Shown: positions 2,880 to 61,130 of the stretch, piece by piece
Numbering within the stretch: the stretch's first letter is position 1
How the letters are laid out: each line of letters opens with the position of its first letter
Source: Otis tarda
Taxonomy: Eukaryota > Chordata > Aves > Otidiformes > Otididae
NCBI GenBank assembly: GCA_026413225.1
Contig: CM048552.1
Span: 84,421,001 to 84,485,000, forward strand
DNA: 64,000 nucleotides
Direction of reading: 5' to 3'
Notes under the pieces: model-generated
Database searches by the model: none
The model's input: only the letters and a program-made list of their open reading frames with translations
What the model was told of the DNA's origin: nothing
Program-made: the position numbers and the translations under genes

Positions 2880-5800
2880 CAAGCTCTTGCTGCTCCTCAG
2901 CGGCCATTGGCAGCGCATCTACAGCACCACAGACACTGGCGCTCTGGGCTTTCCCTGAGGAACACGGCTTCAACGTTTGCCCCAAGCTGCACGTGAGCGC
3001 CCACTTATAAAGAACCCCAAAAAATCTCGAAGGTCGGACGCTTGCTCCCACACCAAAAGTGCCAGCCACTCAAGCTCTTGCTGCTCCTCAGCGGCCATTG
3101 GCAGCGCATCTACAGCACCACAGACACTGGGGCTCCGGGCTTTCCCTGAGGAGCATGGCTTCGACCTTTGCCCCCAGGTGGATCGCGGCGCCCGCTGAAA
3201 TAGAAACCCCGAAAAATCACGAACGTCGGACGATTGCTCCCACATCAAAAGTGCCAGCCACTCAAGCTCTTGCTGCTCCTCAGCGGCCATTGGCAGCGCA
3301 TCTACAGCACCACAGACACTGGGGCTCCGGGCCTTCCCTGAGGAGCAGGGCTTCGACGTTTGCCCCCAGCTGCACGTGGGGGCCCACTGAAAAAAAACCC
3401 CGAAAAATAACGAACGTCGGACGATTGCTCCCACACCAAAAGTGCCAGCCACTCAAGCTCTTGCTGCTCCTCAGCGGCCATTGGCAGCGTATCTACAGCA
3501 CCACAGACATTGGGGCTGCAGGCTTTCCATGAGGAGCAATGCATCCACGTTTGCCCCCAGCTGCACATGGGCGCCCTCTGAAAAAAAACCCCGAAAAATC
3601 ACGAACGTCGGACGATTGCTCCCACACCAAAAGTGCCAGCCACTCAAGCTCTTGCTGCTCCTCAGCGGCCATTGGCAGCGCATCTACAGCACCACAGACA
3701 CTGGGGCTCCGGGCCTTCCCTGAGGAGCAGGGCTTCGATGTTTGCCCCCAGCTGCTCCTGGGCGCCTACTGAAGAAAAACCCCTAAGAATCACGAACATT
3801 GGTCGATTGCTCCCACACCAAAAGTGCCAGCCACTCAAGCTCTTGCTGCTCCTCAGCGGCCATTGGCAGCGCATCTACAGCACCACAGACATTCGGGCTC
3901 CAGGGATTCCCTGAGGAGCAGGGCTTCGACATTTGCAACCAGCTGCACGTGTGTGCCCACTGAAAAAAACCCCGTAAAATCAGGAACGTCGGACAATTGC
4001 TGCAAAACCAAAAGTGCCAGCCACTCAAGCTCTTGCTGCTCCTCAGCGGCCATTGGCAGCGCATCTACAGCACCACAGACGTTGGGGCTCCAGGCTTTCC
4101 CTGAGGAGCAGGGCTTCGACGTTTACCACCAGCTGCACGTGGGAGCCCCTGAAGAAAACCCCGAAAAATAACGAACATCGGACGATTGCTCCCACACCAA
4201 AAGTGCCAGCCACTCAAGCTCTTGCTGCTCCTCACCGGCCATTGGCAGCGCATCTACAGCACCACAGACACTGGGGCTCCGGGCTTTGCCTGAGGAGCAG
4301 GGCTTCGACATTTGCAACCAGCTGCACGTGTGTGCCCAATGAAAAAAAACCCCGAAAAATGAGGAACGTCGGACGATTGCTCCCACACCAAAAGTGCCAG
4401 CCACTCAAGCTCTTGCTGCTCCTCAGCGGCCATTGGCAGTGCATCTACAGCACCACAGACATTAGGGCTCCAGGCTTTCCCTGACGAACAGGGCTTCGAC
4501 GTTTACCACCAGGTGCACGTGTGCGCCCACTGAAAATAAACCCCGAAAAATCACGAACGTCGGATGATTGCTCCCACACCACAAGTGCCAGCCACTCAAG
4601 CTCTTGCTGCTCCTCAGCGGCCATTGGCAGCGCATCTACAGCACCACAGACACTGGCGCTCTGGGCTTTCCCTGAGGAACACGGCTTCAACGTTTGCCCC
4701 AAGCTGCACGTGAGCGCCCACTGAAAAAGAACCCCAAAAAATCTCGAAGGTCGGACGCTTGCTCCCACACCAAAAGTGCCAGCCACTCAAGCTCTTGCTG
4801 CTCCTCAGCGGCCATTGGCAGCGCATCTACAGCACCACAGACACTGGGGCTCCGGGCTTTCCCTGAGGAGCATGGCTTCGACGTTTGCCCCCAGGTGCAT
4901 CGCGGCGCCCGCTGAATTAGAAACCCCAAAAAATCACAAACGTCGGACGATTGCTCCCACACCAAAAGTGCCAGCCACTCAAGCTCTTGCTGCTCCTCAG
5001 CGGCCATTGGCAGCGCATCTACAGCACCACAGACACTGGGGCTCCGGGCCTTCCCTGAGGAGCAGGGCTTCGACGTTTGCCCCCAGCTGCACGTGGGGGC
5101 CCACTGAAAAAAAACCCCGAAAAATAACGAACGTCGGACGATTGCTCCCACACCAAAAGTGCCAGCCACTCAAGCTCTTGCTGCTCCTCAGCGGCCATTG
5201 GCAGCGTATCTACAGCACCACAGACATTGGGGCTGCAGGCTTTCCATGAGGAGCAATGCATCGACGTTTGCCCCCAGCTGCACATGGGCGCCCATGAAGA
5301 AAAACCCCGAAAAATCACGAACGTCGGACGATTGCTCCCACACCAAAAGTGCCAGCCACTCAAGCTCTTGCTGCTCCTCAGCGGCCATTGGCAGCGTATC
5401 TACAGCACCACAGACATTGGGGCTGCAGGCTTTCCATGAGGAGCAATGCATCGACGTTTGCCCCCAGCTGCACATGGGCGCCCTCTGAAGAAAAACCCCG
5501 AAAAATCACGAACGTCGGACGATTGCTCCCACACCAAAAGTGCCAGCCACTCAAGCTCTTGCTGCTCCTCAGCGGCCATTGGCAGCGCATCTACAGCACC
5601 ACAGACACTGGGGCTCCGGGCCTTCCCTGAGGAGCAGGGCTTCGATGTTTGCCCCCAGCAGCCCCTGGGCGCCTACTGAAGAAAAACCCCTAAGAATCAC
5701 GAACATTGGTCGATTGCTCCCACACCAAAAGTGCCAGCCACTCAAGCTCTTGCTGCTCCTCAGCGGCCATTGGCAGCGCATCTACAGCACCACAGACATT

Positions 5801-7560
5801 AGCGCTCCGGGCTTTCCCTGAGGTGCAGGCCTTCAACGTTTACCACCAGCTGCACGTGTGCGTGCACAGAATAAAATCCGCGAAAAATGACGAACGTTGG
5901 ACGATTGCTCCCACACCAAAAGTGCCAGCCACTCAAGCTCTTGCTGCTCCTCAGCGGCCATTGGCAGCGCATCTACAGCACCACAGACATTGGGTCTCCA
6001 GGGATTCCCTGAGGAGCAGGGCTTCGACATTTGCAACCAGCTGCACGTGGGTGCCCACTGAAAAAAACCCCGTAAAATCAAGAACGTCGGACAATTGCTG
6101 CAAAACCAAAAGTGCCAGCCACTCAAGCTCTTGCTGCTCCTCAGCGGCCATTGGCAGCGCATCTACAGCACCACAGACGTTGGGGCTCCAGGCTTTCCCT
6201 GAGGAGCAGGGCTTCGACGTTTACCACCAGCTGCACGTGGGAGCCCCTGAAGAAAACCCCGAAAAATAACGAACATCGGACGATTGCTCCCACACCAAAA
6301 GTGCCAGCCACTCAAGCTCTTGCTGCTCCTCACCGGCCATTGGCAGCGCATCTACAGCACCACAGACACTGGGGCTCCGGGCTTTGCCTGAGGAGCAGGG
6401 CTTCGACATTTGCAACCAGCTGCACGTGTGTGCCCAATGAAAAAAAAACCCCGAAAAATGAGGAACGTCGGACGATTGCTCCCACACCAAATGTGCCAGC
6501 CACTCAAGCTCTTGCTGCTCCTCAGCGGCCATTGGCAGTGCATCTACAGCACCACAGACATTAGGGCTCCAGGCTTTCCCTGACGAACAGGGCTTCGACG
6601 TTTACCAGCAGGTGCACGTGTGCGCCCACTGAAAATAAACCCCGAAAAATCACGAACGTCGGATGATTGCTCCCACACCACAAGTGCCAGCCACTCAAGC
6701 TCTTGCTGCTCCTCAGCGGCCATTGGCAGCGCATCTACAGCACCACAGACACTGGCGCTCTGGGCTTTCCCTGAGGAACACGGCTTCAACGTTTGCCCCA
6801 AGCTGCACGTGAGCGCCCACTGAAAAAGAACCCCAAAAAATCTCGAAGGTCGGACGATTGCTCCCACACCAAAAGTGCCAGCCACTCAAGCTCTTGCTGC
6901 TCCTCAGCGGCCATTGGCAGCGCATCTACAGCACCACAGATACTGGGGCTCCGGGCCTTCCCTGAGGAGCATGGCTTCGACGTTTGCCCCCAGGTGCATC
7001 GCGGCGCCCGCTGAAATAGAAACCCCAAAAAATCACAAACGTCGGACGATTGCTCCCACACCAAAAGTGCCAGCCACTCAAGCTCTTGCTGCTCCTCAGC
7101 GGCCATTGGCAGCGCATCTACAGCACCACAGACACTGGGGCTCCGGGCCTTCCCTGAGGAGCAGGGCTTCGACGTTTGCCCCCAGCTGCACGTGGGGGCC
7201 CACTGAAAAAAAACCCCGAAAAATAACGAACGTCGGACGATTGCTCCCACACCAAAAGTGCCAGCCACTCAAGCTCTTGCTGCTCCTCAGCGGCCATTGG
7301 CAGCGTATCTACACCACCACAGACATTGGGGCTGCAGGCTTTCCATGAGGAGCAATGCATCGACGTTTGCCCCCAGCTGCACATGGGCGCCCTCTGAAGA
7401 AAAACCCCGAAAAATCACGAACGTCGGACGATTGCTCCCACACCAAAAGTGCCAGCCACTCAAGCTCTTGCTGCTCCTCAGCGGCCATTGGCAGCGCATC
7501 TACAGCACCACAGACAGTGGGGCTCCGGGCCTTCCCTGAGGAGCAGGGCTTCGACATTTG
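2880..7560. repeat. HOR block A: 9-mer then 11-mer unit, two copies plus a partial third
   Basis: A monomer marked by AACACGGCTTCAACG occurs at 2961, 4678 and 6777. These spacings are 1,717 bp (9 monomers) and 2,099 bp (11 monomers). Copies run about 2,880-4,596, 4,597-6,695 and 6,696-7,560, with monomers in the same order. The second copy is longer by two monomers: one directly duplicated monomer (5,159-5,539) and one extra divergent monomer (about 5,826-6,018). The third copy breaks off into another series near 7,560. Boundaries are approximate because neighbouring monomers are alike. Confidence 0.85.
5159..5539. repeat. Tandem duplication of a single distinctive monomer
   Basis: Two adjacent monomers (5,159-5,348 and 5,349-5,539) share a rare set of variants: CAGCGTATC, GGGGCTGCAGGC, TTTCCATGAGGAGC and AATGCATCGACG. 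They differ mainly at the end, CCCATGAAG against CCCTCTGAAG. The corresponding place in the first copy of block A (3,442-3,632) has one such monomer, so this looks like a local one-monomer duplication within the 11-mer copy. Confidence 0.85.
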
Positions 7561-7659
7561 AAACCAGCTGCACGTGCGTCCCCAATGAAAAAAACCATGA
7601 AAAATCACGAACGTCGGACGATTGCTCCCACACCAAAAGTGCCAGCCACTCAAGCTCTT

Positions 7660-10600
7660 GCTGCTCCTCAGCGGCCATTGGCAGCGCATCTACAGCACCA
7701 CAGACATTGGGGCTGCGGGCTTTCCCTGAGGAGCAATGCTTCGACGTTTGCCCCCAGCTGCACCTGGGCGCCAACTGAAAAATAAAACCCTAAAAATCAC
7801 GAACGTCGGACGATTCCTCCCACACCAAAAGTGCCAGCCACTCAAGCTCTTGCTGCTCCTCAGCGGCCATTGGCAGCGCATCTACAGCACCACAGACACT
7901 GGGGCTCTGGGCCTTCCCTGAGGAGCAGGGCTTCGATGTTTGCCACCAGCTGCACGTGGGCGCCCACTGAAAAGAATCCCCGAAAAATCACGAACGTCGG
8001 ACGATTGCTCCCACACCAAAAGTGCCAGCCACTCAAGCTCTTGCTGCTCCTCAGCGGCCATTGGCAGCCCATCTACAGCACCACAGACACTGGCGCTCTC
8101 GGCTTTCCCTTAGGAACAGAGCTTCAATGTTTACCACCAGCTGCACGTGGGCGCCTACGAGAAAAAAACACCGAAAAATCACGAACGTCGGACGATTGCT
8201 CCCACACCAAAAGTGCCAGCCACTCAAGCTCTTGCTGCTCCTCAGCGGCCATTGGCAGTGCATCTACAGCACCACAGACACTGGGGCTGCGGGGTTTCCC
8301 TGAGCAGCAGGGCTTCGACGTTTAACACCAGCTGCACGTGGGCGCCCACTGAAAATAGAACCCCGAAAAATCACGAACGTTGGACGATTGCTCCCACACC
8401 AAAAGTGCCAGCCACTCAAGCTCTTTTAAATCCTCAGCGGCCACTGACAGCGCATCTACAGCACCACAGACACTGGCGCTCTGGGCTTTCCCTGACGAAC
8501 AGGGCTTTGACATTTGCCACCGGCTGCACGTGGGCGCCTACGAAAAAAAACCCCGAAAAATCACGAACGTCGGACGATTGCTCCCACACCAAAAGTGCCA
8601 GCCACTCAAGCTCTTGCTGCTCCTCAGCGGCCATTGGCAGCGCATCTACAGCACCACAGACACTGGGGCTCCGGGCTTTCTCTGAGGAGCAGGGCTTCGA
8701 CGTTTACCACAAGCTGCACCTTGGCGCCCCTTGAAAAAAAACCCCTAAGACTCACGAACGTCGGACGATTGCTCCCACACCAAAAGTGCCAGCCACTCAA
8801 GCTCTTGCTGCTCCTCAGCGGCCACTGACAGCGCATCTACAGCACCACAGACACTGGCGCTCTGGGCTTTCCCTGACGAACAGGGCTTCGACGTTTGCAA
8901 CCAGCTGCACGTGGGCGCATACGGAAAAAAAACCGCGAAAAACCACGAACGTTGGACGATAGCTCCCACACCAAAACTGCCAGCCACTCAAGCTCTTGCT
9001 GCTCCTCAGCGGCCATTGGGAGCGCATCTACAGCACCACAGACACTGGGGCTCTGGGCTTTCCCTGAGGAGCAGGGCTTTGACGTTTGCAACCAGCTGCA
9101 CCTGGGCGCCAACTGAAAAATAGCCCCAAAATATCACGAACGTTAGACGATTGCTCCCACACCAAAAGTGACAGACACTCAAGATCTTGCTGCTCTTCAG
9201 CGGCCATTGGCAGCGCATCTACAGCACTACAGACATTGGCGCTTAGGGCTTTCCCTGAGGAGCAGGGCTTCGATGTTTGCCAACAGCTGCACGTGGGCAC
9301 CAACGAAAAAAAGCCCCGAAAAATCACGAACGTCGGACGATTGCTCCCACACCAAAAGTGACAGCCACACAAGCTCTTCCTGCTCCTCAGCGGACACTGG
9401 CAGCGCATCTACAGCACCACAGACATTGGGGCTCCGGGCTTTCCCTGAGGAGCAGGGCTTCGACATTTGCCCCCTGCTGCACGTGGGTGCCCAATGAATA
9501 AAACCATGTAAAATCACGAACGTCGGACGATTGCTCCCACACCAAAAGTGTCAGCCACTCAAGCTCTTGCTGCTCCTCAGCGGCCATTGGCAGCGCATCT
9601 ACAGCACCACAGACACTGGGGCTCCGGGCTTTCCCTGAGGAGCAGGGCTTCGACGTTTAACACCAGCTGCACCTTGGCGCCCCCTGAAAAAAAACCCCTA
9701 AGACTCACGAACGTCGGACGATTGCTCCCACACCAAAAGTGCCAGCCACTCAAGCTCTTGCTGCTCCTCAGCGGCCACTGACAGCGCATCTACAGCACCA
9801 CAGACATTGGGGCTCCAGGCTTTCCCTCAGGAGCAGGGCTTTGACATTTGCCACCAGCTGCACGTGGGCGCCCACTGAAATAAAAACCCCCTAAAATCAC
9901 TAACGTCGGACGATTGCTCCCACACCAGAAGTGCCAGCTACTGAAGCTCTTGCTGCTCCTCAGCGGCCATTGGCAGCGCATCTACAGCACCACAGACACT
10001 GGGGCTCCGGGCATTCCCTGATGAACAAGGCTTCGACGTTTACCACCAGCTGCACCTGGGCGCCTACGGAAAAAAAACCCTGAAAAATCACGAAAGTCGG
10101 ACGATTGCTCCCACACCTAAAGTGCCAGCCACTCAAGCTCTTGCTGCTCCTCAGCGGCCATTGGCAGTGCATCTACAGCAGCACAGACATTGGGGCTGCG
10201 GGCTTTCCCTGAGGAGCAATGCTTCGACGTTTGCCCCCAGCTGCACCTGGGCGCCAACTGAAAAATAAAACCCTAAAAATCACGAACGTCGGACGATTGC
10301 TCCCACACCAAAAGTGCCAGCCACTCAAGCTCTTGCTGCTCCTCAGCGGCCATTGGCAGCGCATCTACAGCACCACAGACACTGGGGCTCTGGGCCTTCC
10401 CTGAGGAGCAGGGCTTCGATGTTTGCCACCAGCTGCACGTGGGCGCCCACTGAAAAGAATCCCCGAAAAATCACGAACGTCGGACGATTGCTCCCACACC
10501 AAAAGTGCCAGCCACTCAAGCTCTTGCTGCTCCTCAGCGGCCATTGGCAGTGCATCTACAGCACCACAGACACTGGGGCTGCGGGGTTTCCCTGAGGAGC

Positions 10601-11780
10601 AGGGCTTCGACGTTTAATACCAGCTGCACGTGGGCGCCCACTGAAAATAGGACCCCGAAAAATCACGAACGTTGGACGATTGCTCCCACACCAAAAGTGC
10701 CAGCCACTCAAGCTCTTTTAAATCCTCAGCGGCCACTGACAGCGCATCTACAGCACCACAGACACTGGCGCTCTGGGCTTTCCCTGACGAACAGGGCTTT
10801 GACATTTGCCACCGGCTGCACGTGGGCGCCTACGAAAAAAACCCCGAAAAATCACGAACGTCGGAAGATTGCTCCCACACCAAAAGTGCCAGCCACTCAA
10901 GCTCTTGCTGCTCCTCAGCGGCCATTGGCAGCGCATCTACAGCACCACAGACACTGGGGCTCCGGGCTTTCTCTGAGGAGCAGGGCTTCGACGTTTACCA
11001 CAAGCTGCACCTTGGCGCCCCTTGAAAAAACCCCTAAGACTCACGAACGTCGGACGATTGCTCCCACACCAAAAGTGCCAGCCACTCAAGCTCTTGCTGC
11101 TCCTCAGCGGCCACTGACAGCGCATCTACAGCACCACAGACACTGGCGCTCTGGGCTTTCCCTGACGAACAGGGCTTCGACGTTTGCAACCAGCTGCACG
11201 TGGGCGCATACGGAAAAAAAACCGCGAAAAACCACGAACGTCGGACGATAGCTCCCACACCAAAACTGCCAGCCACTCAAGCTCTTGCTGCTCCTCAGCG
11301 GCCATTGGGAGCGCATCTACAGCACCACAGACACTGGGGCTCTGGGCTTTCCCTGAGGAGCAGGGCTTCGACATTTGCCCCCTGCTGCACGTGGGTGCCC
11401 AATGAATAAAACCATGTAAAATCACGAACGTCGGACGATTGCTCCCACACCAAAAGTGTCAGCCACTCAAGCTCTTGCTGCTCCTCAGCGGCCATTGGCA
11501 GCGCATCTACAGCACCACAGACACTGGGGCTCCGGGCTTTCCCTGAGGAGCAGGGCTTCGACGTTTAACACCAGCTGCACCTTGGCGCCCCCTGAAAAAA
11601 AACCCCTAAGACTCACGAAAGTCGGACGATTGCTCCCACACCAAAAGTGCCAGCCACTCAAGCTCTTGCTGCTCCTCAGCGGCCACTGACAGCGCATCTA
11701 CAGCACCACAGACATTGGGGCTCCAGGCTTTCCCTCAGGAGCAGGGCTTTGACATTTGCCACCAGCTGCACGTGGGCGCC
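7660..11780. repeat. HOR block B: large duplication (~12-13 monomers) with monomer losses
   Basis: The series from about 7,660 is repeated from about 10,143. The offset is 2,483 bp at first. It drops to 2,292 bp after about 8,190, because the second copy lacks one monomer. It is about 1,910 bp near 9,470-9,790, because two more monomers present at 9.1-9.45 kb are missing. A rare change, TTTTAAATCC in place of the usual TGCTGCTCC, marks the same monomer at about 8,424 and 10,716. The region between the copies (9.87-10.14 kb) is ordinary satellite. Boundaries are approximate. Confidence 0.8.
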
Positions 11781-13139
11781 CACTGAAAAAAAACCCCGAA
11801 AAATCACGAACGTCGGACGATTGCTCCCACACCAAAAGTGCCAGCCACTCAAGCTCTTGCTGCTCCTCAGCGACGATTGGCAGCGCATCTACAGCACCAC
11901 AGACACTGGGGCTCCGGGCATTCCCTGAGGAGCAGGGCTTCGACATTTGCAAACAGCTGCACGTGGGCGCCCACTGAAAAAATACCCCGAAAAATCACGA
12001 ACGTCGGACGATTACTCCCACACCAGAAGTGCCAGCCACTCAAGCTCTTGCTGCTCCTCAGCGGCCATTGGCAGCGCATCTACAGCACCACAGACACTGG
12101 GTCTCCGGGCATTCCCTTACGAACAAGGCTTCGACGTTTACAACCAGCTGCACCTGGGCGCATACGGAAAAAAAAAACCCCAAAAATCACGAAGGTCGGA
12201 CGATTGCTCCCACACCAAAAGTGCCAGCCACTCAAGCTCTTGCTGCTCCTCAGCGGCCATTGGCAGCGCATCTACAGCACCACAGACATTGAGGCTCCAG
12301 GCTTTCCCTGACGAGCAGGGCTTTGACATTTTCCACCAGCTGCACGTGGGCGCCTACGGAAAAAAAATCCCCGAAAAATAACGAACGTCGGACGATTACT
12401 CCCAAACCAAAAGTGCCAGCCACTCAAGCTCTTGCTGCTCCTCAGCGGCCACTGGCAGCGCATCTACAGCACCACAGACATTGGGGCTCCGGGCTTTCCC
12501 TGAGGAGCAGGGCTTCGACATTTGCCCCCAGCTGCACGTGGGCGCCAACTGAAAAAAAACCCCGAAAAATCACGAACGTCGGACGATTGCTCCCACACCA
12601 AAAGTGTCAGCCACTCAAGCTCTTGCTGCTCCTCAGCGGCCATTGGCAGCGCATCTACAGCACCACAGTCACTGGGGCTCCGGGCTTTCCCTGACGAACA
12701 AGGCTTCGACGTTTATCACCAGGTGCACCTGGGCGCCTACGGAAAAAAACCCCGAAAAATCACGAACGTCGGACGATTGCTCCCACACCAAAAGTGCCAG
12801 CCACTCAAGCTCTTGCTGCTCCTCAGCGGCCATTGGCAGTGCATCTACAGCACCACAGACACTGGGGCTGCGGGGTTTCCCTGAGGAGCAGGGCTTCGAC
12901 GTTTGCGCTCAGCTGCACGTGGGCGCTCACTGAAAAAAAACCCCGAAAAATCACGAACGTTGGATGATTGCTCCCACACCAAAAGTGCCAGCCACTCAAG
13001 CTCTTGCTGCTCCTCAGCGGCCATTGGCAGCGCATCTACAGCACCACAGACATTGGGGCTCCAGGCTTTCCCTGAGGAGCAGGGCTTTGACATTTGCCAC
13101 CAGCTGCACGTGGGCGCCCACTGAAAATAGAACCCCGAA
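11781..13139. repeat. Satellite region between HOR blocks B and C
   Basis: About seven monomers of several subtypes, including copies with GCGCATACGG or GCGCCTACGG in place of the 12-bp palindrome and A-runs of up to nine. I see no short HOR period confined to this stretch and nothing that is not satellite. Confidence 0.8.
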
Positions 13140-17640: not shown

Positions 17641-17966
17641 CGGGCTTTCCCTGACGAACAGGGCTTCGACGTTTACCACCAGCTGCACGTGGGCGCCTAC
17701 GGAAAAAAAACCCTGAAAAATCACGAACGTCGGACGATTGCTCCCACACCAAAAGTGCCAGCCACTCAAGCTCTTGCTGCTCCTCAGCGGCCATTGGCAG
17801 CGCATCTACAGCACCACAGACATTGGGGCTCCGGGCTTTCCCTGAGGAGCAGGGCTTCGACGTTTGCCCCCAGCTGCACCTGGGCACCCACTGAAAAAAA
17901 CCCCGAAAAATCACGAACGTCGGACGATTGCTCCCACACCAAAAGTGCCAGCCACTCAAGCTCTTG

Positions 17967-18042
17967 CTGCTCCTCAGCGGCCATTGGCAGCGCATCTACA
18001 GCACCACAGACACTGGGGCTCCGGGCTTTCCCTGAGGAGCAG
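17967..18042. repeat. 11-bp inverted repeat with 54-nt spacer inside the monomer
   Basis: CTGCTCCTCAG at 17967-17977 is the exact reverse complement of CTGAGGAGCAG at 18032-18042, with 54 nt between them. Most monomers in the window keep both arms, so the array holds this dyad at about 191-bp spacing. The left arm is the more constant. The right arm is broken in monomers that carry CTGACGAACAG, a common subtype at 8-22 kb. Either strand of DNA, or any transcript, could form an 11-bp stem with a large loop. Whether it does, or binds a protein as a dyad, is not shown by the sequence. Confidence 0.85.
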
Positions 18043-18066
18043 GGCTTCGACATTTGCCACCAGCTG

Positions 18067-18081
18067 CACGTGGGCGCCCAC
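18067..18081. other. E-box CACGTG overlapping 12-bp palindrome GTGGGCGCCCAC
   Basis: The E-box at 18067-18072 overlaps a perfect 12-bp palindrome at 18070-18081. A second palindromic hexamer, CAGCTG, lies directly upstream at 18061-18066. An A-run follows within four bases. CACGTG is the canonical site for bHLH-zip factors such as USF and MYC/MAX. Its occurrence in a satellite may be chance. Many monomers carry variants (CACCTGGG, CACGTGTG, GCGCCTACGG, GTGCCCAATG), so only a subset keep the full palindrome. Confidence 0.8.
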
Positions 18082-18091
18082 TGAAAAAAAA

Positions 18092-18109
18092 CCCCGAAAA
18101 ATCACGAAC
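18092..18109 (-). other. CENP-B-box-like segment with spacer one base too long
   Basis: Read on the minus strand, this segment is TTCG, eight bases, CGGG. The mammalian CENP-B box essential core is TTCG, seven bases with A at the fifth, then CGGG. Both half-sites are therefore present in the consensus monomer, with one extra base between them and without the central A. The same arrangement recurs in the many monomers with CCCCGAAAAATCACGAAC. It is a resemblance only: CENP-B normally requires exact spacing, and I do not know that this organism has CENP-B. Confidence 0.35.
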
Positions 18110-40563: not shown

Positions 40564-40580
40564 AAAAAAAAAAAAAAAAA
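40564..40580. repeat. Expanded A17 homopolymer within a monomer
   Basis: The A-run after CCCCCTG is 17 bases here; most monomers have 6 to 9. The CCCCT that normally follows is absent, and the run passes straight into GAATCACGAAGG. The monomer belongs to the AAAAACACCTAAGAATC subtype seen near 28.77 and 31.62 kb, so the C-block was lost or replaced by A. Homopolymer miscalling is possible. Confidence 0.8.
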
Positions 40581-49900: not shown

Positions 49901-50216
49901 AGCTGCACGTGGGCACCCACTGAAAAAAAAACATGTACAATCATGAACGTCGGACGATTACACCCACACCAAAAGTGCCAGTCACTCAAGCTCTTGCTGC
50001 TCCTCAGCGGCCATTGACAGTGCATCTACAGCACCACAGACACTGGGGCTCCGGGCTTTCCCTGAGGAGCAGGGCTTTGACATTTGCCACCAGCTGCACC
50101 TGGGCGCCCACTGAAAAATAAACCCGAAAAATCACGAACGTCGGACGATTGCTCCCACACCAAAAGTGCCAGCCACTCAAGCTCTTGCTGCTTCTCAGCG
50201 GCCATTGGCAGCGCAT
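46971..50216. repeat. HOR block H, copy 1 (17 monomers, 3,246 bp)
   Basis: Copy 1 begins with the monomer carrying CTTGCTGCCCTTCAGTGGCC. It includes GCTTAGAAGTTTGCC, the AAAAAATAAACATATAAAATC monomer and the CCACTAAAAAAAAAACGCC monomer. It has the same order as copy 2 but lacks one monomer. The offset changes from 3,246 to 3,438 bp near 47.65-47.69 kb, where GAAGAAAAACCCCG is joined to the monomer with CACACCGAAACTGCC. Confidence 0.85.
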
Positions 50217-53200
50217 CTACAGCACCGCAGACACTGGGGCTCCGGGCTTTCCCTGAGGAGCAGGGCTTCGACATTTGCAACCAGCTGCACGTGGGCGCCA
50301 ACTGAAAAAAAAACCACGAAAAAGCACGAACGTCGGACGATTGCTCCCACACCAAAAGTGCCAGCCACTCAAGCTCTTGCTGCCCTTCAGTGGCCATTGG
50401 CAGCGCATCTACAGCACCACAGACACTGGGACTCCGGGATTTCCCTGAGGAGCAGGCTTAGAAGTTTGCCCCCAGCTGAACCTGGGCGCCAATTGAAAAA
50501 TAGCACCGAAATATCACTAACGTTGGACGATTGCTCCCACACCAAAAGTGCCAGCCACTCAAGCTCTTGCTGCTCCTCAGCGGCCATTGGCAGCGCATCT
50601 ACAGCACCACAGACATTGGGGCTGCGGGCTTTCCCTGAGGAGCAATGCTTCGACGTTTGCCCCCAGCTGAACGTGGGTGCCCACTGAAAAAAACCCCTAA
50701 GAATCAGGAACATCGGACGATTGCTCCCACACCAAAAGTGCCAGCCACTCAAGCTCTTGCTGCTCCTCAGTGGCCATTGGCAGCGCATCTACAGCACTAC
50801 AGAAATTGGGGCTCCGGGCTTTCCCTGAGGAGCAATGCTTCGACGTTTGCAACCAGCTGCTCGTGGGCGCCCTCTGAAGAAAAAACCCCGAAAAATCACG
50901 AACGTCGGACGATTGCTCCCACACCAAAAGTGCCAGCCACTCAAGCTCTTGCTGCTCCTCAGCGACCATTGGCAGCGCATCTACAGCACCACAGACACTG
51001 GGGCTCCGGGCTTTCCCTGAGGAGCAGGGCTTCGACATTTGCAGCCAGCTGCACCTGGGCGCGCACTGAAAAAAAACCCCTTAAAATCACGAACGTCGGA
51101 CGATTGCTCCCACACCGAAACTGCCAGCCACTCAAGCTCTTGCTGCTCCTCAGCGGCCATTGGCAGCGCATCTACAGCACCACAGACACTGGGACTCCAG
51201 GATTTCCCTGAGGAGCAGGGCTTTGAAGTTTGCCCCCAGCTGAACCTGGGCGACAATTTAAAATAGCCCCGAAATATCACGAACGTTGGACGATTGCTCC
51301 CACACCAAAAGTGCCAGCCACTCAAGCTCTTGCTGCTCCTCAGCGACCATTGGCAGCGCATCTACAGCACCACAGACACTGGGGCTCCGGGCTTTCCCTG
51401 AGGAGCAGGGCTTCGACATTTGCAGCCAGCTGCACGTGGGCGCCCACTGAAAAAAAACCCCTAAGAATCAGGAACATCAGACGATTGCTCCCACACCAAA
51501 AGTGCCAGCCACTCAAGCTCTTGCTGCTCCTCACCGGCCATTGGCAGCGCATCTACAGCACCACAGACATTGGGGCTGCGGGCTTTCCCTGAGCAGCAAT
51601 GCTTTCGACGTTTGCCCCCAGCTGCACGTGGGTGCCCAATGAAAAAATAAACATATAAAATCACGAACATCGGACGATTGCTCCCACACCAAAAGTGCCA
51701 GCCACTCAAGCTCTTGCTGCTCTTCAGCGGCCATTGGCAGCGCATCCACAGCACCACAGACACTGGGACTCCGGGATATCCCTGAGGAGCAGGGCTTTGA
51801 CATTTGCCCCCAGCTGAACCTGGGCGCCAATTGAAAAATAGCCCCGAAATATCACGAACGTCGGACGATTGCTCCCACACCAAAAGTGCCAGCAACTCAA
51901 GCTCTTGCTGCTCCTCAGCGGCCATTGGCAGCGCATCTACAGCACCACAGATATTGGGGCTGCGGGCTTTCCCTGAGGAGCAGGGCTTCGACGTTTTCCC
52001 ACAGCTACACGTGGGTGCCCACTGAAAAAAAAACCCGAAAAATCACGAACATCGGACGATTGCTCCCACACCAAAAGTGCCAGCCACTCAAGCTCTTGCT
52101 GCTCCTCAGCGGCCATTGGCAGCGCATCTACAGCACCACAGACATTGGGGCTCCAGGCTTTCCCTGAGGAGCAGGGCTTTGACATTTGCCACCAGCTGCA
52201 CCTGGGCGCCCACTAAAAAAAAACGCCTTAAATCACAAACGTCGGACGATTGCTCCCACACCAAAAGTGCCAGCCACTCAAGCTCTTGCTGCTCCTCAGC
52301 GGCCACTGGCAGCGCATCTACAGCACCACAGACATTTGGGCTCCGGGCTTTCCCTGACGATCAAGGCTTCGACGTTTACCACCAGCTGCACGTGGGCGCC
52401 TACGGAAAAAAAAACCCCGAAAAATCAGGAACGTCGGACGATTGCTCCCACACCACAAGTGCCAGCCACTCAAGCTCTTGCTGCTCCTCAGCGGCCACTA
52501 ACAGCGCATCTACAGCACCACAGACATTGGGGCTCCGGGCTTTCCCTGAGGAGCAGGGCTTCGACATTTGCCTCCAGCTGCACGTGGGTGCCCAGTGAAA
52601 AAACCATGTAAAATCACGAACGACGGACGATTGCTCCCACACCAAAAGTGCCAGCCACTCAAGCTCTTGCTGCTCCTCAGCGGCCATTGGCAGCGCATCT
52701 ACAGCACCACAGACATTGGGGCTGCGGGCTTTCCCTGAGGAGCAATGCTTTGAAGTTTGCCCCCAGCTGCACGTGGGAGCCCACTGAAAAAAAAACCCGA
52801 AAAATCACGAACGTCGGACGATTGCTCCCACACCAAAAGTGCCAGCCACTCAAGCTCTTGCTGCTCCTCAGCGGCCATTGGCAGCGCATCTACAGCACCA
52901 CAGACATTGGGGCTCCGGGCTTTCCCTGAGGAGCAGGGCTTCGACGTTTGCCACCAGCAGCACGTGGGCGCCCTCTGAAGAAAAACCCCGAAAAATCAGG
53001 AACGTTGGACGATTGCTCCCACACCAAAAGTGCCAGCCACTCAAGCTCTTGCTGCTCCTCAGCAGCCACTTACAGCGCATCTACAGCACCATAGACACTG
53101 GTGCTCTGGGCTTTCCCTGACGAACAGGGCTTCGACGTTTGCAACCAGCTGCACCTGGGCACCCACTGAAAAAAAAACGCGAAAAACCACGAACATTGGA

Positions 53201-53648
53201 CGATTGCTCCCACACCAAAAGTGCCAGCCACTCAAGCTCTTGCTGCTCCTCAGCGGCCATTGGCAGCGCATCTACAGCACCACAGACATTGGGGCTCCGG
53301 GCTTTCCCTGAGGAGCAGGCGTTCGACGATTCCCACCAGCTGCACGTGGGCACCCACTGAAAACATGTACAATCATGAACGTCGGACGATTACACCCACA
53401 CCAAAAGTGCCAGTCACTCAAGCTCTTGCTGCTCCTCAGCGGCCATTGACAGTGCATCTACAGCACCACAGACACTGGGGCTCCGGGCTTTCCCTGAGGA
53501 GCAGGGCTTTGACATTTGCCACCAGCTGCACCTGGGCGCCCACTGAAAAAATAAACCCGAAAAATCACGAACGTCGGACGATTGCTCCCACACCAAAAGT
53601 GCCAGCCACTCAAGCTCTTGCTGCTTCTCAGCGGCCATTGGCAGCGCA
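50217..53648. repeat. HOR block H, copy 2 (18 monomers, about 3,432 bp)
   Basis: This is the fullest regular copy of the unit and follows copy 1 directly. It contains the extra monomer ending GGGCGCGCACTGAAAAAAAA (about 51,060) that copy 1 lacks. Elsewhere the two copies are almost identical, including long stretches around 48.4-50.2 and 51.8-53.6 kb. Confidence 0.85.
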
Positions 53649-54219
53649 TCTACAGCACCGCAGACACTGGGGCTCCGGGCTTTCCCTGAGGAGCAGGGCT
53701 TCGACATTTGCAACCAGCTGCACGTGGGCGCCAACTGAAAAAAAACCACGAAAAAGCACGAACGTCGGACGATTGCTCCCACACCAAAAGTGCCAGCCAC
53801 TCAAGCTCTTGCTGCCCTTCAGTGGCCATTGGCAGCGCATCTACAGCACCACAGACACTGGGACTCCGGGATTTCCCTGAGGAGCAGGCTTAGAAGTTTG
53901 CCCCCAGCTGAACCTGGGCGCCAATTGAAAAATAGCACCGAAATATCACTAATGTTGGACGATTGCTCCCACACCAAAAGTGCCAGCCACTCAAGCTCTT
54001 GCTGCTCCTCAGCGGCCATTGGCAGCGCATCTACAGCACCACAGACATTGGGGCTGCGGGCTTTCCCTGAGGAGCAATGCTTCGACGTTTGCCCCCAGCT
54101 GAACGTGGGTGCCCACTGAAAAAACCCCTAAGAATCAGGAACATCGGACGATTGCTCCCACACCAAAAGTGCCAGCCACTCAAGCTCTTGCTGCTCCTCA
54201 GTGGCCATTGGCAGCGCAT

Positions 54220-56490
54220 CTACAGCACTACAGAAATTGGGGCTCCGGGCTTTCCCTGAGGAGCAATGCTTCGACGTTTGCAACCAGCTGCTCGTGGGCG
54301 CCCTCTGAAGAAAAACCCCGAAAAATCACGAACGTCGGACGATTGCTCCCACACCAAAAGTGCCAGCCACTCAAGCTCTTGCTGCTCCTCAGCGACCATT
54401 GGCAGCGCATCTACAGCACCACAGACACTGGGGCTCCGGGCTTTCCCTGAGGAGCAGGGCTTCGACATTTGCAGCCAGCTGCACCTGGGCGCGCACTGAA
54501 AAAAAAACCCTTAAAATCACGAACGTCGGACGATTGCTCCCACACCGAAACTGCCAGCCACTCAAGCTCTTGCTGCTCCTCAGCGGCCATTGGCAGCGCA
54601 TCTACAGCACCACAGACACTGGGACTCCAGGATTTCCCTGAGGAGCAGGGCTTTGAAGTTTGCCCCCAGCTGAACCTGGGCGACAATTTAAAATAGCCCC
54701 GAAATATCACGAACGTTGGACGATTGCTCCCACACCAAAAGTGCCAGCCACTCAAGCTCTTGCTGCTCCTCAGCGACCATTGGCAGCGCATCTACAGCAC
54801 CACAGACACTGGGGCTCCGGGCTTTCCTGAGGAGCAGGGCTTCGACATTTGCAGCCAGCTGCACGTGGGCGCCCACTGAAAAAAAAAACCCCTAAGAATC
54901 AGGAACATCAGACGATTGCTCCCACACCAAAAGTGCCAGCCACTCAAGCTCTTGCTGCTCCTCACCGGCCATTGGCAGCGCATCTACAGCACCACAGACA
55001 TTGGGGCTGCGGGCTTTCCCTGAGCAGCAATGCTTCGACGTTTGCCCCCAGCTGCACGTGGGTGCCCAATGAAAAAATAAACATATAAAATCACGAACAT
55101 CGGACGATTGCTCCCACACCAAAAGTGCCAGCCACTCAAGCTCTTGCTGCTCTTCAGCGGCCATTGGCAGCGCATCCACAGCACCACAGACACTGGGACT
55201 CCGGGATATCCCTGAGGAGCAGGGCTTTGACGTTTGCCCCCAGCTGAACCTGGGCGCCAATTGAAAAATAGCCCCGAAATATCACGAACGTCGGACGATT
55301 GCTCCCACACCAAAAGTGCCAGCAACTCAAGCTCTTGCTGCTCCTCAGTGGCCATTGGCAGCGCATCTACAGCACTACAGAAATTGGGGCTCCGGGCTTT
55401 CCCTGAGGAGCAATGCTTCGACGTTTGCAACCAGCTGCTCGTGGGCGCCCTCTGAAGAAAAACCCCGAAAAATCACGAACGTCGGACGATTGCTCCCACA
55501 CCAAAAGTGCCAGCCACTCAAGCTCTTGCTGCTCCTCAGCGACCATTGGCAGCGCATCTACAGCACCACAGACACTGGGGCTCCGGGCTTTCCCTGAGGA
55601 GCAGGGCTTCGACATTTGCAGCCAGCTGCACCTGGGCGCGCACTGAAAAAAAACCCCTTAAAATCACGAACGTCGGACGATTGCTCCCACACCGAAACTG
55701 CCAGCCACTCAAGCTCTTGCTGCTCCTCAGCGGCCATTGGCAGCGCATCTACAGCACCACAGACACTGGGACTCCAGGATTTCCCTGAGGAGCAGGGCTT
55801 TGAAGTTTGCCCCCAGCTGAACCTGGGCGACAATTTAAAATAGCCCCGAAATATCACGAACGTTGGACGATTGCTCCCACACCAAAAGTGCCAGCCACTC
55901 AAGCTCTTGCTGCTCCTCAGCGACCATTGGCAGCGCATCTACAGCACCACAGACACTGGGGCTCCGGGCTTTCCCTGAGGAGCAGGGCTTCGACATTTGC
56001 AGCCAGCTGCACGTGGGCGCCCACTGAAAAAAAACCCCTAAGAATCAGGAACATCAGACGATTGCTCCCACACCAAAAGTGCCAGCCACTCAAGCTCTTG
56101 CTGCTCCTCACCGGCCATTGGCAGCGCATCTACAGCACCACAGACATTGGGGCTGCGGGCTTTCCCTGAGCAGCAATGTTTCGACGTTTGCCCCCAGCTG
56201 CACGTGGGTGCCCAATGAAAAAATAAACATATAAAATCACGAACATCGGACGATTGCTCCCACACCAAAAGTGCCAGCCACTCAAGCTCTTGCTGCTCTT
56301 CAGCGGCCATTGGCAGCGCATCCACAGCACCACAGACACTGGGACTCCGGGATATCCCTGAGGAGCAGGCTTTGACGTTTGCCCCCAGCTGAACCTGGGC
56401 GCCAATTGAAAAATAGCCCCGAAATATCACGAACGTCGGACGATTGCTCCCACACCAAAAGTGCCAGCAACTCAAGCTCTTGCTGCTCCT
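54220..56490. repeat. Internal 6-monomer tandem duplication (1,146-1,147 bp unit)
   Basis: Copies run about 54,220-55,366 and 55,367-56,490, each with the monomer order found once in block H copy 2. The junction is a chimeric monomer. It starts with GTGCCAGCAACTC (ending about 55,328), typical of the monomer that precedes ACAGATATTGG. It then continues from about 55,346 with CAGTGGCC and CTACAGAAATTGG, typical of the monomer six positions earlier. The exchange therefore lies within about 20 bp. Confidence 0.85.
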
Positions 56491-57369
56491 CAGCGGCCAT
56501 TGGCAGCGCATCTACAGCACCACAGATATTGGGGCTGCGGGCTTTCCCTGAGGAGCAATGCTTCGACGTTTTCCCACAGCTGCACGTGGGTGCCCACTGA
56601 AAAAAAAACCCGAAAAATCACGAACATCGGACGATTGCTCCCACACCAAAAGTGCCAGCCACTCAAGCTCTTGCTGCTCCTCAGCGGCCACTGGCAGCGC
56701 ATCTACAGCACCACAGACATTGGGGCTCCAGGCTTTCCCTGAGGAGCAGGGCTTTGACATTTGCCACCAGCTGCACCTGGGCGCCCACTAAAAAAAAAAA
56801 CGCCTTAAATCACAAACGTCGGACGATTGCTCCCACACCAAAAGTGCCAGCCACTCAAGCTCTTGCTGCTCCTCAGCGGCCACTGGCAGCGCATCTACAG
56901 CACCACAGACATTTGGGCTCCGGGCTTTCCCTGACGATCAAGGCTTCGACGTTTACCACCAGCTGCACGTGGGCGCCTACGGAAAAAAAACCCCGAAAAA
57001 TCAGGAACGTCGGACGATTGCTCCCACACCACAAGTGCCAGCCACTCAAGCTCTTGCTGCTCCTCAGCGGCCACTAACAGCGCATCTACAGCACCACAGA
57101 CATTGGGGCTCCGGGCTTTCCCTGAGGAGCAGGGCTTCGACATTTGCCTCCAGCTGCACGTGGGTGCCCAGTGAAAAAAACCATGTAAAATCACGAACGT
57201 CGGACGATTGCTCCCACACCAGAAGTGCCAGCCACTCAAGCTCTTGCTGCTCCTCAGCGGCCATTGGCAGCGCATCTACAGCACCACAGACATTGGGGCT
57301 GCGGGCTTTCCCTGAGGAGCAATGCTTTGAAGTTTGCTCCCCAGCTGCACGTGGGAGCCCACTGAAAAA

Positions 57370-57386
57370 ACCCGAAAATCACGAAC
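57370..57386 (-). other. Variant with correct CENP-B-box spacing (8 of 9 core bases)
   Basis: This monomer has lost one A, leaving CCCG, seven bases, CGAA on the plus strand. On the minus strand that is TTCG-N7-CGGG, matching the spacing of the essential CENP-B box. The only core mismatch is the central A, which is T here. I noticed it in this one monomer. It is probably a chance product of the A-run deletion, but it is the closest match I found in the window. Confidence 0.35.
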
Positions 57387-59372
57387 GTCGGACGATTGCT
57401 CCCACACCAAAAGTGACAGCCACTCAAGCTCTTGCTGCTCCTCAGCGGCCATTGGCAGCGCATCTACAGCACCACAGACATTGGGGCTCCGGGCTTTCCC
57501 TGAGGAGCAGGGCTTCGAAGTTTTCCCCCATCTGCACGTGGGCGCTCACTGAAAAAAAAAAGTGAAAAATCACGAACGTCGGACGATTACTCCCACACCA
57601 AAAGTGCCAGCCACTCAAGCTCTTGCTGCTTCTCAGCGGCCATTGGCAGCGCATCTACAGCATCGCAGACACTGGGGCTCCGGGCTTTCCCTGAGGAGCA
57701 GGGCTTCGACATTTGCAACCAGCTGCACGTGGGCGCCCACTGAGAAAAAACCCCCTAAAATCACGAACGTCGGACGATTGCTCCCACACCAGATGTGCCA
57801 GCCACTCAAGCTCTTGCTGCTCCTCAGCGGCCATTGGCAGGGCATCTACAGCACCACAGACACTGGGGCTCCCGGCTTTCCCTCAGGAGCCGGGCTTCGA
57901 CATTTGCCCCCAGCTGCACGTGGGTGCCCAGTGAAAAAAACCATGTAAAATCACGAACGTCGGACGATTGCTCCCACACCAAAAGTGCCAGCCACTCAAG
58001 CTCTTGCTGCTCCTCAGCGGCCATTGGCAGCGCATCTACAGCACCACAGACATTGGGGCTCCGGGCTTTCCCTGAGGAGGAGGGCTTCGACGTTTGCCCC
58101 CAGCAGCACGTGGGCGCCCTCTGAAGAAAAACCCCGAAAAATCAGGAACGTTGGACGATTGCTCCCACACCAAAAGTGCCAGCCACTCAAGCTCTTGCTG
58201 CTCCTCAGCAGCCACTTACAGCGCATCTACAGCACCATAGACACTGGTGCTCTGGGCTTTCCCTGACGAACAGGGCTTCGACGTTTGCAACCAGCTGCAC
58301 CTGGGCACCCACTGAAAAAAAAACGCGAAAAACCACGAACGTCGGACGATTGCTCCCACACCAAAAGTGCCAGTCACTCAAGCTCTTGCTGCTCCTCAGC
58401 GGACATTGGCAGCGCATCTACAGCACCACAGACACTGGGGCTCCGGGCTTTCCCTGAGGAGCAGGGCTTCGACATTTGCAACCAGCTGCACTTGGGCGCA
58501 TACGGAAAAAAAACCGCAAAAAACCACGAACGTCGGACGATTGCTCCCACACCAAAAGTGCCAGCCACTCAAGCTCTTGCTGCTCCTCAGCGGCCATTGG
58601 CAGCGCATCTACAGCACCACAGACACTGGGGCTCTGGGCTTTCCCTGAGGAGCAGGGCTTCGACGTTTACCCCCAGCTGCACTTGGGCGCCCACTGTAAA
58701 AAACCCCCTAAGAATCACGAACGTCGGACGATTGCTCCCACACCAAAAGTGCCAGCCGCTCAAGCTCTTGCTAATCCTCAGCGGCCATTGGCAGCGCATC
58801 TACACCACCACAGACACTGGCGCTCTGGGTTTTCCCTGACGAACAGGGCTTTGAAGTTTGCCCCCAGCTGAACCTGGGCACCAATTGAAAAATAGCCCCG
58901 AAATATCACGAACGTTGGGCGATTGCTCCCACACCAAAAGTGCCAGCCACTCAAGCTCTTGCTGCTCCTCAGCGGCCATTGGCAGCGCATCTACAGCACC
59001 ACAGACATTGGGGCTCTGGGCTTTCCCTGAGGAGCAGGCGTTCGACGATTCCCACCAGCTGCACGTGGGCACCCACTGAAAAAAAAACATGTACAATCAT
59101 GAACGTCGGACGATTACACCCACACCAAAAGTGCCAGTCACTCAAGCTCTTGCTGCTCCTCAGCGGCCATTGACAGTGCATCTACAGCACCACAGACACT
59201 GGGGCTCCGGGCTTTCCCTGAGGAGCAGGACTTTGACATTTGCCACCAGCTGCACCTGGGCGCCCACTGAAAAATAAACCCGAAAAATCACGAACGTCGG
59301 ACGATTGCTCCCACACCAAAAGTGCCAGCCACTCAAGCTCTTGCTGCTTCTCAGCGGCCATTGGCAGCGCAT

Positions 59373-61130
59373 CTACAGCACCGCAGACACTGGGGCTCCG
59401 GGCTTTCCCTGAGGAGCAGGGCTTCGACATTTGCAACCAGCTGCACGTGGGCGCCAACTGAAAAAAAAACCACGAAAAAGCACGAACGTCGGACGATTGC
59501 TCCCACACCAGAAGTGCCAGCCACTCAAGCTCTTGCTGCCCTTCAGTGGCCATTGGCAGCGCATCTACAGCACCACAGACACTGGGACTCCGGGATTTCC
59601 CTGAGGAGCAGGCTTAGAAGTTTGCCCCCAGCTGAACCTGGGCGCCAATTGAAAAATAGCACCGAAATATCACTAACGTTGGACGATTGCTCCCACACCA
59701 AAAGTGCCAGCCACTCAAGCTCTTGCTGCTCCTCAGCGGCCATTGGCAGCGCATCTACAGCACCACAGACATTGGGGCTGCGGGCTTTCCCTGAGGAGCA
59801 ATGCTTCGACGTTTGCCCCCAGCTGAACGTGGGTGCCCACTGAAAAAAACCCCTAAGAATCAGGAACATCGGACGATTGCTCCCACACCAAAAGTGCCAG
59901 CCACTCAAGCTCTTGCTGCTCCTCAGTGGCCATTGGCAGCGCATCTACAGCACTACAGAAATTGGGGCTCCGGGCTTTCCCTGAGGAGCAATGCTTCGAC
60001 GTTTGCAACCAGCTGCTCGTGGGCGCCCTCTGAAGAAAAAACCCCGAAAAATCACGAACGTCGGACGATTGCTCCCACACCAAAAGTGCCAGCCACTCAA
60101 GCTCTTGCTGCTCCTCAGCGACCATTGGCAGCGCATCTACAGCACCACAGACACTGGGGCTCCGGGCTTTCCCTGAGGAGCAGGGCTTCGACATTTGCAG
60201 CCAGCTGCACCTGGGCGCGCACTGAAAAAAAACCCCTTAAAATCACGAACGTCGGACGATTGCTCCCACACCGAAACTGCCAGCCACTCAAGCTCTTGCT
60301 GCTCCTCAGCGACCATTGGCAGCGCATCTACAGCACCATAGACACTGGGGCTCCGGGCTTTCCCTGAGGAGCAGGGCTTCGACATTTGCAGCCAGCTGCA
60401 CGTGGGCGCCCACTGAAAAAACCCCTAAGAATCAGGAACATCAGACGATTGCTCCCACACCAAAAGTGCCAGCCACTCAAGCTCTTGCTGCTCCTCACCG
60501 GCCATTGGCAGCGCATCTACAGCACCACAGACATTGGGGCTGCGGGCTTTCCCTGAGCAGCAATGCTTCGACGTTTGCCCCCAGCTGCACGTGGGTGCCC
60601 AATGAAAAAATAAACATATAAAATCACGAACATCGGACGATTGCTCCCACACCAAAAGTGCCAGCCACTCAAGCTCTTGCTGCTCTTCAGCGGCCATTGG
60701 CAGCGCATCCACAGCCCCACAGACACTGGGACTCCGGGATATCCCTGAGGAGCAGGGCTTTGACGTTTGCCCCCAGCTGAACCTGGGCGCCAATTGAAAA
60801 ATAGCCCCGAAATATCACGAACGTCGGACGATTGCTCCCACACCAAAAGTGCCAGCAACTCAAGCTCTTGCTGCTCCTCAGCGGCCATTGGCAGCGCATC
60901 TACAGCACCACAGATATTGGGGCTGCGGGCTTTCCCTGAGGAGCAATGCTTCGACGTTTTCCCACAGCTGCACGTGGGTGCCCACTGAAAAAAAAACCCG
61001 AAAAATCACGAACATCGGACGATTGCTCCCACACCAAAAGTGCCAGCCACTCAAGCTCTTGCTGCTCCTCAGCGGCCATTGGCAGCGCATCTACAGCACC
61101 ACAGACACTGGGGCTCTGGGCTTTCCCTGA
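59373..61130. repeat. HOR block H, copy 4 (partial)
   Basis: The unit starts again with the CTTGCTGCCCTTCAGTGGCC monomer, 9,156 bp from the start of copy 2. The offset to copy 2 falls to 8,964 bp after about 60,300, so one monomer is missing. The junction joins the CACACCGAAACTGCC monomer (60,270-60,280) to the monomer with CAGCGACCATTGG (60,308-60,318). Similarity to block H ends near 61,130. Confidence 0.85.

What the first reader, a model, noticed from the sequence alone, without database searches (positions are those of the whole stretch)
2880..61130. Higher-order repeat length changes repeatedly along one array
Units of 9, 11, about 12-13, 9, 10, 6 and 17/18-30 monomers follow one another within 60 kb, and series from one block reappear in others (AGATCT monomer at 9.2, 13.6, 15.3, 17.0, 19.9 kb). 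This looks like layered local amplifications rather than one homogenised HOR. It could mark an array edge or a fast-evolving array.
Basis: seen in the sequence. Interest (0 to 1): 0.7.

Follow-up and report, generated by a model that had tools for sequence, protein, structure and literature searches.

The report
Patchwork of duplications in bird satellite
A 64-kb stretch of a bird chromosome consists of one 191-base repeat whose recent history of overlapping local duplications can still be read; the pattern is real but is an ordinary way for centromere-type repeats to evolve.

Summary
The window is one head-to-tail array of a 191-bp satellite (335.5 copies). Near-identical runs of monomers recur at 9, 11, 12, 9, 15, 10, 6, 18, 24 and 30 monomers. 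The longest run is 22 monomers, against at most 3 in 100 shuffles. The long units have only about two to 2.6 copies, though one four-monomer series recurs five times; only 5 of 51 runs across both arms look like intact tandem duplications. This is a patchwork of recent local duplications in a monomeric array, not a series of homogenised HORs.

The window is the inner part of an 80-kb arm on a 216-Mb bird contig. Rightward lie a core of ~635/826-bp units with a ~435-bp LTR-like insert, an assembly gap, and a 62-kb arm in opposite orientation. That arm has the same mosaic with other lags. The likeliest mechanism is in-register unequal exchange plus gene conversion, as in known layered/cascading HORs. 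The outer 12 kb has almost no runs, so the mosaic does not mark the edge. Side finding: in this arm half of each monomer stays nearly constant although recent changes hit both halves.

The parts
1..63994 (+). Continuous head-to-tail array of a 191-bp satellite monomer (335 monomers, all found in one orientation)
   Evidence: TRF, anchor scan
2866..7446 (+). 9-monomer unit (offset 1717 bp, 4 matched monomers), its 11-monomer derivative (2098-2100 bp, 8 matched monomers), then a partial third copy
8211..11263 (+). Pair of 4-monomer runs at offset 2292 bp (12 monomers)
13175..17561 (+). 9-monomer unit, about 2.6 copies (14 matched monomers, mean 1.4 differences, offset 1718 bp); carries AGATCT at 13573, 15291, 17006
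16608..20994 (+). 15-monomer offset (2860 bp), 8 matched monomers; carries AGATCT at 17006 and 19866
22521..26338 (+). 10-monomer unit in two adjacent copies (10 matched monomers, mean 0.8 differences, offset 1909 bp)
25956..28053 (+). 6-monomer offset (1144 bp), 5 matched monomers, adjoining the second copy of the 10-mer
28818..38705 (+). Partial, interleaved copies at offsets of 17, 22, 23, 29, 31 and 35 monomers
29961..30135 (+). 175-bp monomer; the only other one starts at 35861, in the lag-31 copy
40042..47109 (+). Stretch with no run of 3 or more matched monomers at lag up to 40
47681..55313 (+). 18-monomer unit, about 2.2 copies (22 matched monomers, mean 1.2 differences, offset 3438 bp)
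50736..60274 (+). 24-monomer (4578 bp), 30-monomer (5719 bp) and 6-monomer (1147 bp, from 54167) offsets made of monomer types of the 18-monomer block
3228..3318 (+). One example of the low-variation zone of a monomer (consensus positions 171-191 plus 1-70, 91 bases)
   Evidence: zone; place of this example read by eye

Best explanation
The window is part of one arm of a centromere-type satellite array on a 216-Mb contig of a bird. SHOWN: blocks of neighbouring monomers, at lags of about 5-30 monomers and more, recur in monomer register, mostly within 20 kb, and are much more alike than unrelated monomers; blocks overlap and cut one another, so the unit length changes along the array. INFERRED: the copying is unequal exchange (or an equivalent recombination-repair event) between misaligned sister chromatids, later events cutting up earlier ones, with gene conversion adding a share of the small differences between copies. 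Nothing has homogenised the arm as a whole. The neighbouring LTR-bearing core amplified separately and more recently than the monomer pool diverged. The centromeric role is inferred from position and presence on several contigs, not shown.
For: Offsets are whole multiples of about 191 bp. Runs far exceed shuffles. 169 of 184 independent paired copies differ at 3 or fewer sites (pairs selected at 7 or fewer), all pairs by a median of 21. In the left arm close pairs (5 or fewer differences) fall from 2.0-3.0% of pairs at 1-6 kb to 0.06% at 20-30 kb, 1 of 12,298 at 30-40 kb and 0 of 22,156 beyond 40 kb. The 10-mer block shows the expected geometry: two copies plus a 137-bp shared tract. Nested derivatives (9 to 11; 18 to 24/30/6) can be read in the monomer map. 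Right arm: same style, different lags; between arms 13 of 134,820 pairs have 7 or fewer differences and the longest shared run (9 or fewer) is 2. Differences between young copies carry alleles already at 5% or more elsewhere more often than random mutation predicts: 28% vs 8% in the conserved zone, 51% vs 24% in the variable zone.
Against: 46 of 51 runs are shorter than their lag, so single-step unequal exchange does not explain them without further unseen events. Under 1 kb the share of close pairs is lower (0.77%) than at 1-6 kb. The right arm declines more slowly: 0.35% at 30-40 kb and 8 of 6,405 pairs at 40-60 kb, the farthest 53 kb apart. Mechanism is read from end states of one assembly; no reads were available. 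No CENP-A data for this animal.
Confidence: 0.78

Rival explanations
1. Remnant of one formerly homogeneous HOR array that has decayed by mutation and deletion, leaving different apparent periods.
For: Monomer types of one block recur in others (AGATCT monomer over 10.7 kb; the series of types 17-20 at five places).
Against: Copies within blocks are about 99% alike while monomers in general differ by about 11%; lags do not share one base period; the other arm has a different set of lags and no shared run longer than 2; 40.0-47.1 kb has no run at lag up to 40.
Confidence: 0.1
2. Assembly artefact: false local duplications or mis-ordered reads in a satellite.
For: There is a 500-N gap 44 kb to the right of the window, so this is a hard region; no reads could be checked.
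Against: Independent copies differ at about 0.7% of sites rather than being identical, although 85 of 184 pairs show no difference; the map is nested and consistent; a rare 175-bp monomer is shared by the two copies of one run; near-identical monomers also occur within samples of some other contigs (C36, C68), though not in all.
Confidence: 0.08
3. Copy-and-paste by extrachromosomal circles or break-induced replication inserting blocks of monomers at nearby sites, rather than sister-chromatid exchange.
For: Most duplicated blocks are not adjacent to their copies (46 of 51 runs).
Against: Later overlapping duplications also separate copies; the decline with distance and in-register offsets suit misaligned exchange; the clean cases are adjacent.
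Confidence: 0.2

Closest known systems
Chicken CNM centromeric HORs (PMC9974502; passages read)
   Same: Bird centromeric satellite; monomers divergent within and between chromosomes yet forming HORs; authors compare with human 'layered expansions'; one centromere core consists of three tandem copies of an ERV.
   Different: 41-bp monomer; HOR units of 26-98 monomers in clusters of 5-162 units. Here the monomer is 191 bp and the long units have about two to 2.6 copies.
Duck APL-HaeIII satellite (PMC6435179; abstract and passages)
   Same: 190-bp monomer; similar inter-monomer identity (84.7% there; median 21 of 191 differences, about 89%, here); 313 HaeIII, 211 MspI, 246 TaqI and 0 BamHI sites in 335 monomers, in line with its Southern ladders.
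   Different: GC 51.6% there against 55.7-57.5% per 2-kb bin here. Sequences could not be compared because the clone sequence is in an unheld figure. The FISH probe gave no signal on duck chromosomes 1 and Z; this array is on a 216-Mb contig. The alpha-haemoglobin exon 2 does not match the duck entry best (entry species recalled).
Alpha-satellite cascading / patchwork HORs of primates (PMC11157248, PMC12428378; search listing only)
   Same: Independent HOR expansions of different length side by side.
   Different: There the HOR units form large arrays (recalled); here the long units have two to three copies.
Macro-dyad symmetry of Tribolium satellites (PMC13081366; passages read)
   Same: Satellite arms in opposite orientation over tens of kb at a putative (peri)centromere.
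   Different: Here one case in a bird, with an LTR-bearing core and an assembly gap between the arms; that paper says such symmetries were documented exclusively in Tribolium.

Membership tests
Homogenised higher-order repeat (HOR) array | Monomers within a unit diverged, copies of the unit nearly identical | tested here: met
   Median 21 differences between monomers; mean 1.2 per monomer between 184 independent paired copies chosen at 7 or fewer
Homogenised higher-order repeat (HOR) array | Unit of one length repeated many times in tandem | tested here: not met
   About two to 2.6 copies of the long units; 5 of 51 runs intact tandem
Layered / cascading local HORs | Several different unit lengths, nested in or cutting one another | tested here: met
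   Monomer map and lag runs
Layered / cascading local HORs | Age gradient from a young centre to old flanks | tested here: inconclusive
   Distance to consensus is nearly flat along the left arm (10.5-13.8 of 191) and tends to rise outward in the right arm (12.7 to 20.5); 37 core units of the ~826-bp kind are 95.7% alike at the median
Centromeric satellite | Same satellite at one place on many chromosomes | tested here: inconclusive
   Hits on nine contigs: C1, C12, C13, C17, C36, C67, C68, C84, C108 (only 40 of 3085 candidates scored; several are small contigs, so the number of chromosomes is unknown)
Centromeric satellite | CENP-A occupancy | not testable with these tools
   No chromatin data
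CENP-B-box satellite | 17-bp CENP-B box | tested here: not met
   0 matches with up to 3 mismatches; core motif with up to 1 mismatch: 2 against 9.25 expected (motif recalled)
APL-HaeIII (duck) | Sequence homology to the 190-bp duck clone | not testable with these tools
   Clone sequence not in the held text; only length, GC and restriction pattern compared
Solo LTR captured in the core repeat | TG...CA ends and a short target duplication inside a monomer | tested here: met
   pairs 51 starts and ends; one is a second start inside the first insert, so 50 distinct inserts (49 of 432-440 bp, one of 477). 49 are preceded by CAGGG; after the 51 pairings come CAGGC (29), CAAGG (21) or CAAAG (1), so the duplication is imperfect. 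LTR origin is inferred from the ends; no repeat library was available

The most novel reading that the evidence does not exclude
The C1 locus is a bird centromere built as a macro-dyad: two independently evolving satellite arms in opposite orientation around a young LTR-bearing core. Half of every monomer is kept nearly constant by selection for a bound factor (strongly in the window's arm), while local duplication constantly reshuffles the other half.
Probability: 0.12. Interest if true: 0.62.

Novelty: new member of a known kind. Interest (0 to 1): 0.33.

Why it matters
Birds' centromeric satellites are still little studied at sequence level (my impression, not a count). This arm is a legible record of satellite turnover on a scale of roughly 1-6 kb, before homogenisation erases it, so the size, range and register of the events can be measured. 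It also lets one ask, inside one array, whether a conserved monomer zone reflects selection, conversion or a mutational cold spot. The basic phenomenon is known.

Tried and rejected
A fuzzy-regex monomer search timed out and was replaced by a mismatch scan. Rfam: nothing at gathering thresholds in the window. CENP-B box: none. Telomere repeats: no doubled TTAGGG in the window and no tripled one in the 255-kb region. Long stop-free stretches exist (up to 265 codons), but 191 is not a multiple of 3 and no coding role was pursued. 'Tgut191A', a recalled name for a zebra-finch 191-bp satellite, gave no paper, so identity with it is untested. Breakpoint phase: intervals often contain the conserved zone, but that zone is about half the monomer, so this was not counted as evidence. 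Naming the species from haemoglobin exons gave only 'bird'. A mutational cold spot as sole cause of the conserved zone was rejected for the left arm but not for the right arm. Against the zone contrast: an allele-count test on 98 clusters (199 and 239 recent, 101 and 158 old) was not significant (Fisher p = 0.11), although the ratios in the same call did differ (recent 1.20, bootstrap 0.98-1.48; old pairwise 2.04-2.83). The zone boundaries were chosen by eye from the same data, which somewhat inflates the old ratio. Young-copy differences from all 629 overlapping pairs were replaced by 184 independent pairs, which weakened the contrast. In one search the observed allele frequencies exclude near relatives while the expected ones use all monomers, a small mismatch.
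Full report
WHERE IT IS. The window lies in an unnamed 1.198-Gb genome of 116 contigs, at C1:84,421,001-84,485,000, with C1 216.4 Mb long. Globin matches put four genes close together near one end of C1 and three on C15. One exon 2 from each group was tested: they match alpha-A and beta haemoglobin chains best (in one search six engineered double-alpha chains rank above by summing two stretches). That the leading entries are ostrich, duck, goose and pigeon is recalled. The animal is a bird; I could not name it.

THE ARRAY. TRF gives one array, 1-63994, period 191, 335.5 copies. All 336 anchors are on the plus strand (30 bases, up to 7 mismatches; 0 reverse). Monomer pairs differ at a median of 21 aligned positions.

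THE OBSERVATION. Runs of near-identical monomers recur at fixed lags: 9, 11, 12, 9, 15, 10, 6, then 17-35 interleaved, then 18, 24, 30 and 6. The AGATCT sites are exact. Shuffling monomer order 100 times never gave a run longer than 3; the longest observed is 22. 227 of 335 monomers lie in a run of at least 3 with lag up to 40, and 235 at any lag. The stretch 40,042-47,109 has none at lag up to 40.

WHAT THE UNITS ARE. The monomer map shows the changes of period as nested edits. The 9-mer at 2.9 kb becomes an 11-mer when one monomer type doubles and one unmatched monomer is added. A 6-mer adjoins the second copy of the 10-mer and shares its types. The 18-mer block supplies the types seen at lags 24, 30 and 6. 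One series of four types, which includes the AGATCT monomer, recurs five times between 8.8 and 20.2 kb. Of 51 runs (lag under 40, length 4 or more, both arms) only 5 span at least their lag, as an intact tandem duplication should; 46 are shorter. I therefore prefer 'patchwork of local duplications' to 'changing HOR'.

SURROUNDINGS. The plus-strand array runs from 84,408,813 to 84,488,930 (421 anchors at up to 8 mismatches), so the window starts 12 kb inside its left edge. From 84.489 to 84.5285 Mb the monomers are interleaved with inserts with TG...CA ends, at spacings mostly of about 826 or 635 bp. A gap of 500 N lies at 84,528,553-84,529,052. From there a minus-strand array runs to 84,590,835 (322 anchors), followed by short blocks of both orientations. 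One search paired 51 insert starts and ends. One is a second start inside the first insert, leaving 50 distinct inserts: 49 of 432-440 bp and one of 477. 49 follow CAGGG; after the 51 pairings come CAGGC (29), CAAGG (21) or CAAAG (1), which fits a solo LTR with a decayed target duplication. 37 core units of the ~826-bp kind (the ~635-bp kind left out) are 93.6-100% alike, median 95.7%. A 435-bp piece (about 411 bp of insert and 24 bp of the following monomer) is identical in 9 places, 7 of 8 spacings being 2.3-3.3 kb. The 40 scored hits of that piece are all in this core, out of 2176 first-look candidates. The insert family is probably dispersed; whether the composite exists elsewhere is not settled.

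SCALE OF TURNOVER. In the left arm the share of monomer pairs with 5 or fewer differences is 0.77% under 1 kb, 3.0% at 1-2 kb, 2.0% at 4-6 kb, 0.72% at 10-15 kb, 0.06% at 20-30 kb, 1 of 12,298 pairs at 30-40 kb, and 0 of 22,156 beyond 40 kb (the script's labels say 'kb' but are bases). The right arm falls more slowly, with 0.35% at 30-40 kb and the farthest close pair 53 kb apart. It has its own lags (14, 33, 18, 23, 26, 29), 246 of 321 monomers in runs, and no run longer than 2 shared with the left arm. Monomers from eight other contigs (170 monomers in 35.1 kb) are about as far from the window's as the window's are from each other (median 17-24 against 20). The nearest neighbour of a window monomer is at a median of 2 within the window and 13-18 in those contigs. 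The samples are small (14-36 monomers each), which by itself raises the latter; seen from the contigs, the nearest of the 336 window monomers is still 7-14 away. So a genome-wide pool of diverged monomers appears to be copied only locally.

MECHANISM. In-register lags, adjacency in the clean cases, the fall with distance and nesting suit repeated unequal exchange between misaligned sisters. 184 independent pairs of copies (27 runs) differ at 224 sites, more unevenly than Poisson (variance 2.39, mean 1.22) and more clustered than random (38% of gaps within 15 bp against 28%). The differing alleles are often ones common elsewhere: 28% against 8% expected in the conserved zone, 51% against 24% in the variable zone. 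This points to gene conversion in addition. These are inferences from one assembly.

A CONSERVED HALF. Consensus positions about 171-191 plus 1-70 (91 sites) vary little; 71-170 vary much. Among unrelated pairs in the window the variable zone differs 3.37 times as often per site; among 90 recent paired copies only 1.69 times (39 against 66 differences; bootstrap 1.26-2.19). Differences likely to be new mutations (allele under 1% elsewhere) are about even in both arms together: 30 conserved, 25 variable. So in this arm the conserved zone is not merely a mutational cold spot; selection or zone-limited conversion must remove variation there. Against this: in the right arm old and young ratios agree (1.90 and 1.77, bootstrap 1.2-2.71); among the eight other contigs the ratio ranges from 1.02 (C84) to 2.93 (C68); a cruder allele-count test over both arms was not significant (Fisher p = 0.11); and the zone was drawn by eye on these data. 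I leave the cause open.

KNOWN OR NEW. Chicken centromeres form HORs likened to human layered expansions, and one core is made of ERVs (PMC9974502, passages). Duck has a 190-bp centromeric satellite with a compatible restriction pattern (PMC6435179, abstract and passages; site counts here), but its sequence could not be compared, and its GC content differs. Mallard centromeres carry APL-HaeIII with CR1 invasions (PMC11745021, passages); the Pekin duck paper reports the same repeat at assembled centromeres (PMC7787181, passages). In nematodes conserved motifs sit at satellite monomer junctions (PMC3694981, abstract). Opposed satellite arms were said to be documented exclusively in Tribolium (PMC13081366, passages). 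My searches for a bird 191-bp satellite, avian HORs and solo-LTR composites showed no listing that describes this structure. They cover open-access papers only, and I did not open the listed papers that merely contain '191 bp' (for example PMC2966331, PMC5559828). I file the finding as a new member of a known kind.

Noticed in passing
G000:C1:84,489,003-84,528,552 (L014-L018): Composite core: mostly one or two 191-bp monomers' worth of satellite plus a ~435-bp TG...CA insert (solo-LTR-like), 50 distinct inserts; nine identical 435-bp stretches, mostly 2.3-3.3 kb apart, point to very recent amplification.
   Followed up: partly
G000:C1:84,408,813-84,590,835: The satellite changes orientation across the core and an assembly gap: an 80-kb plus arm and a 62-kb minus arm that share no run longer than two monomers.
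   Followed up: partly
window 1-64000, each monomer, consensus positions 171-191 and 1-70: About half of each monomer is nearly invariant in this arm although recent copies change in both halves; the contrast is weak in the other arm and absent in the sample of contig C84.
   Followed up: yes
window 29961 and 35861: Two 175-bp monomers, the only ones of that length in the window, lie in the two copies of a lag-31 run.
   Followed up: yes
G000:C1:84,591,227-84,600,471 (L024-L025): Beyond the right arm, short blocks of diverged monomers in alternating orientation; the 17 extracted have a median nearest-neighbour distance of 57-64 aligned positions to every other group.
   Followed up: no
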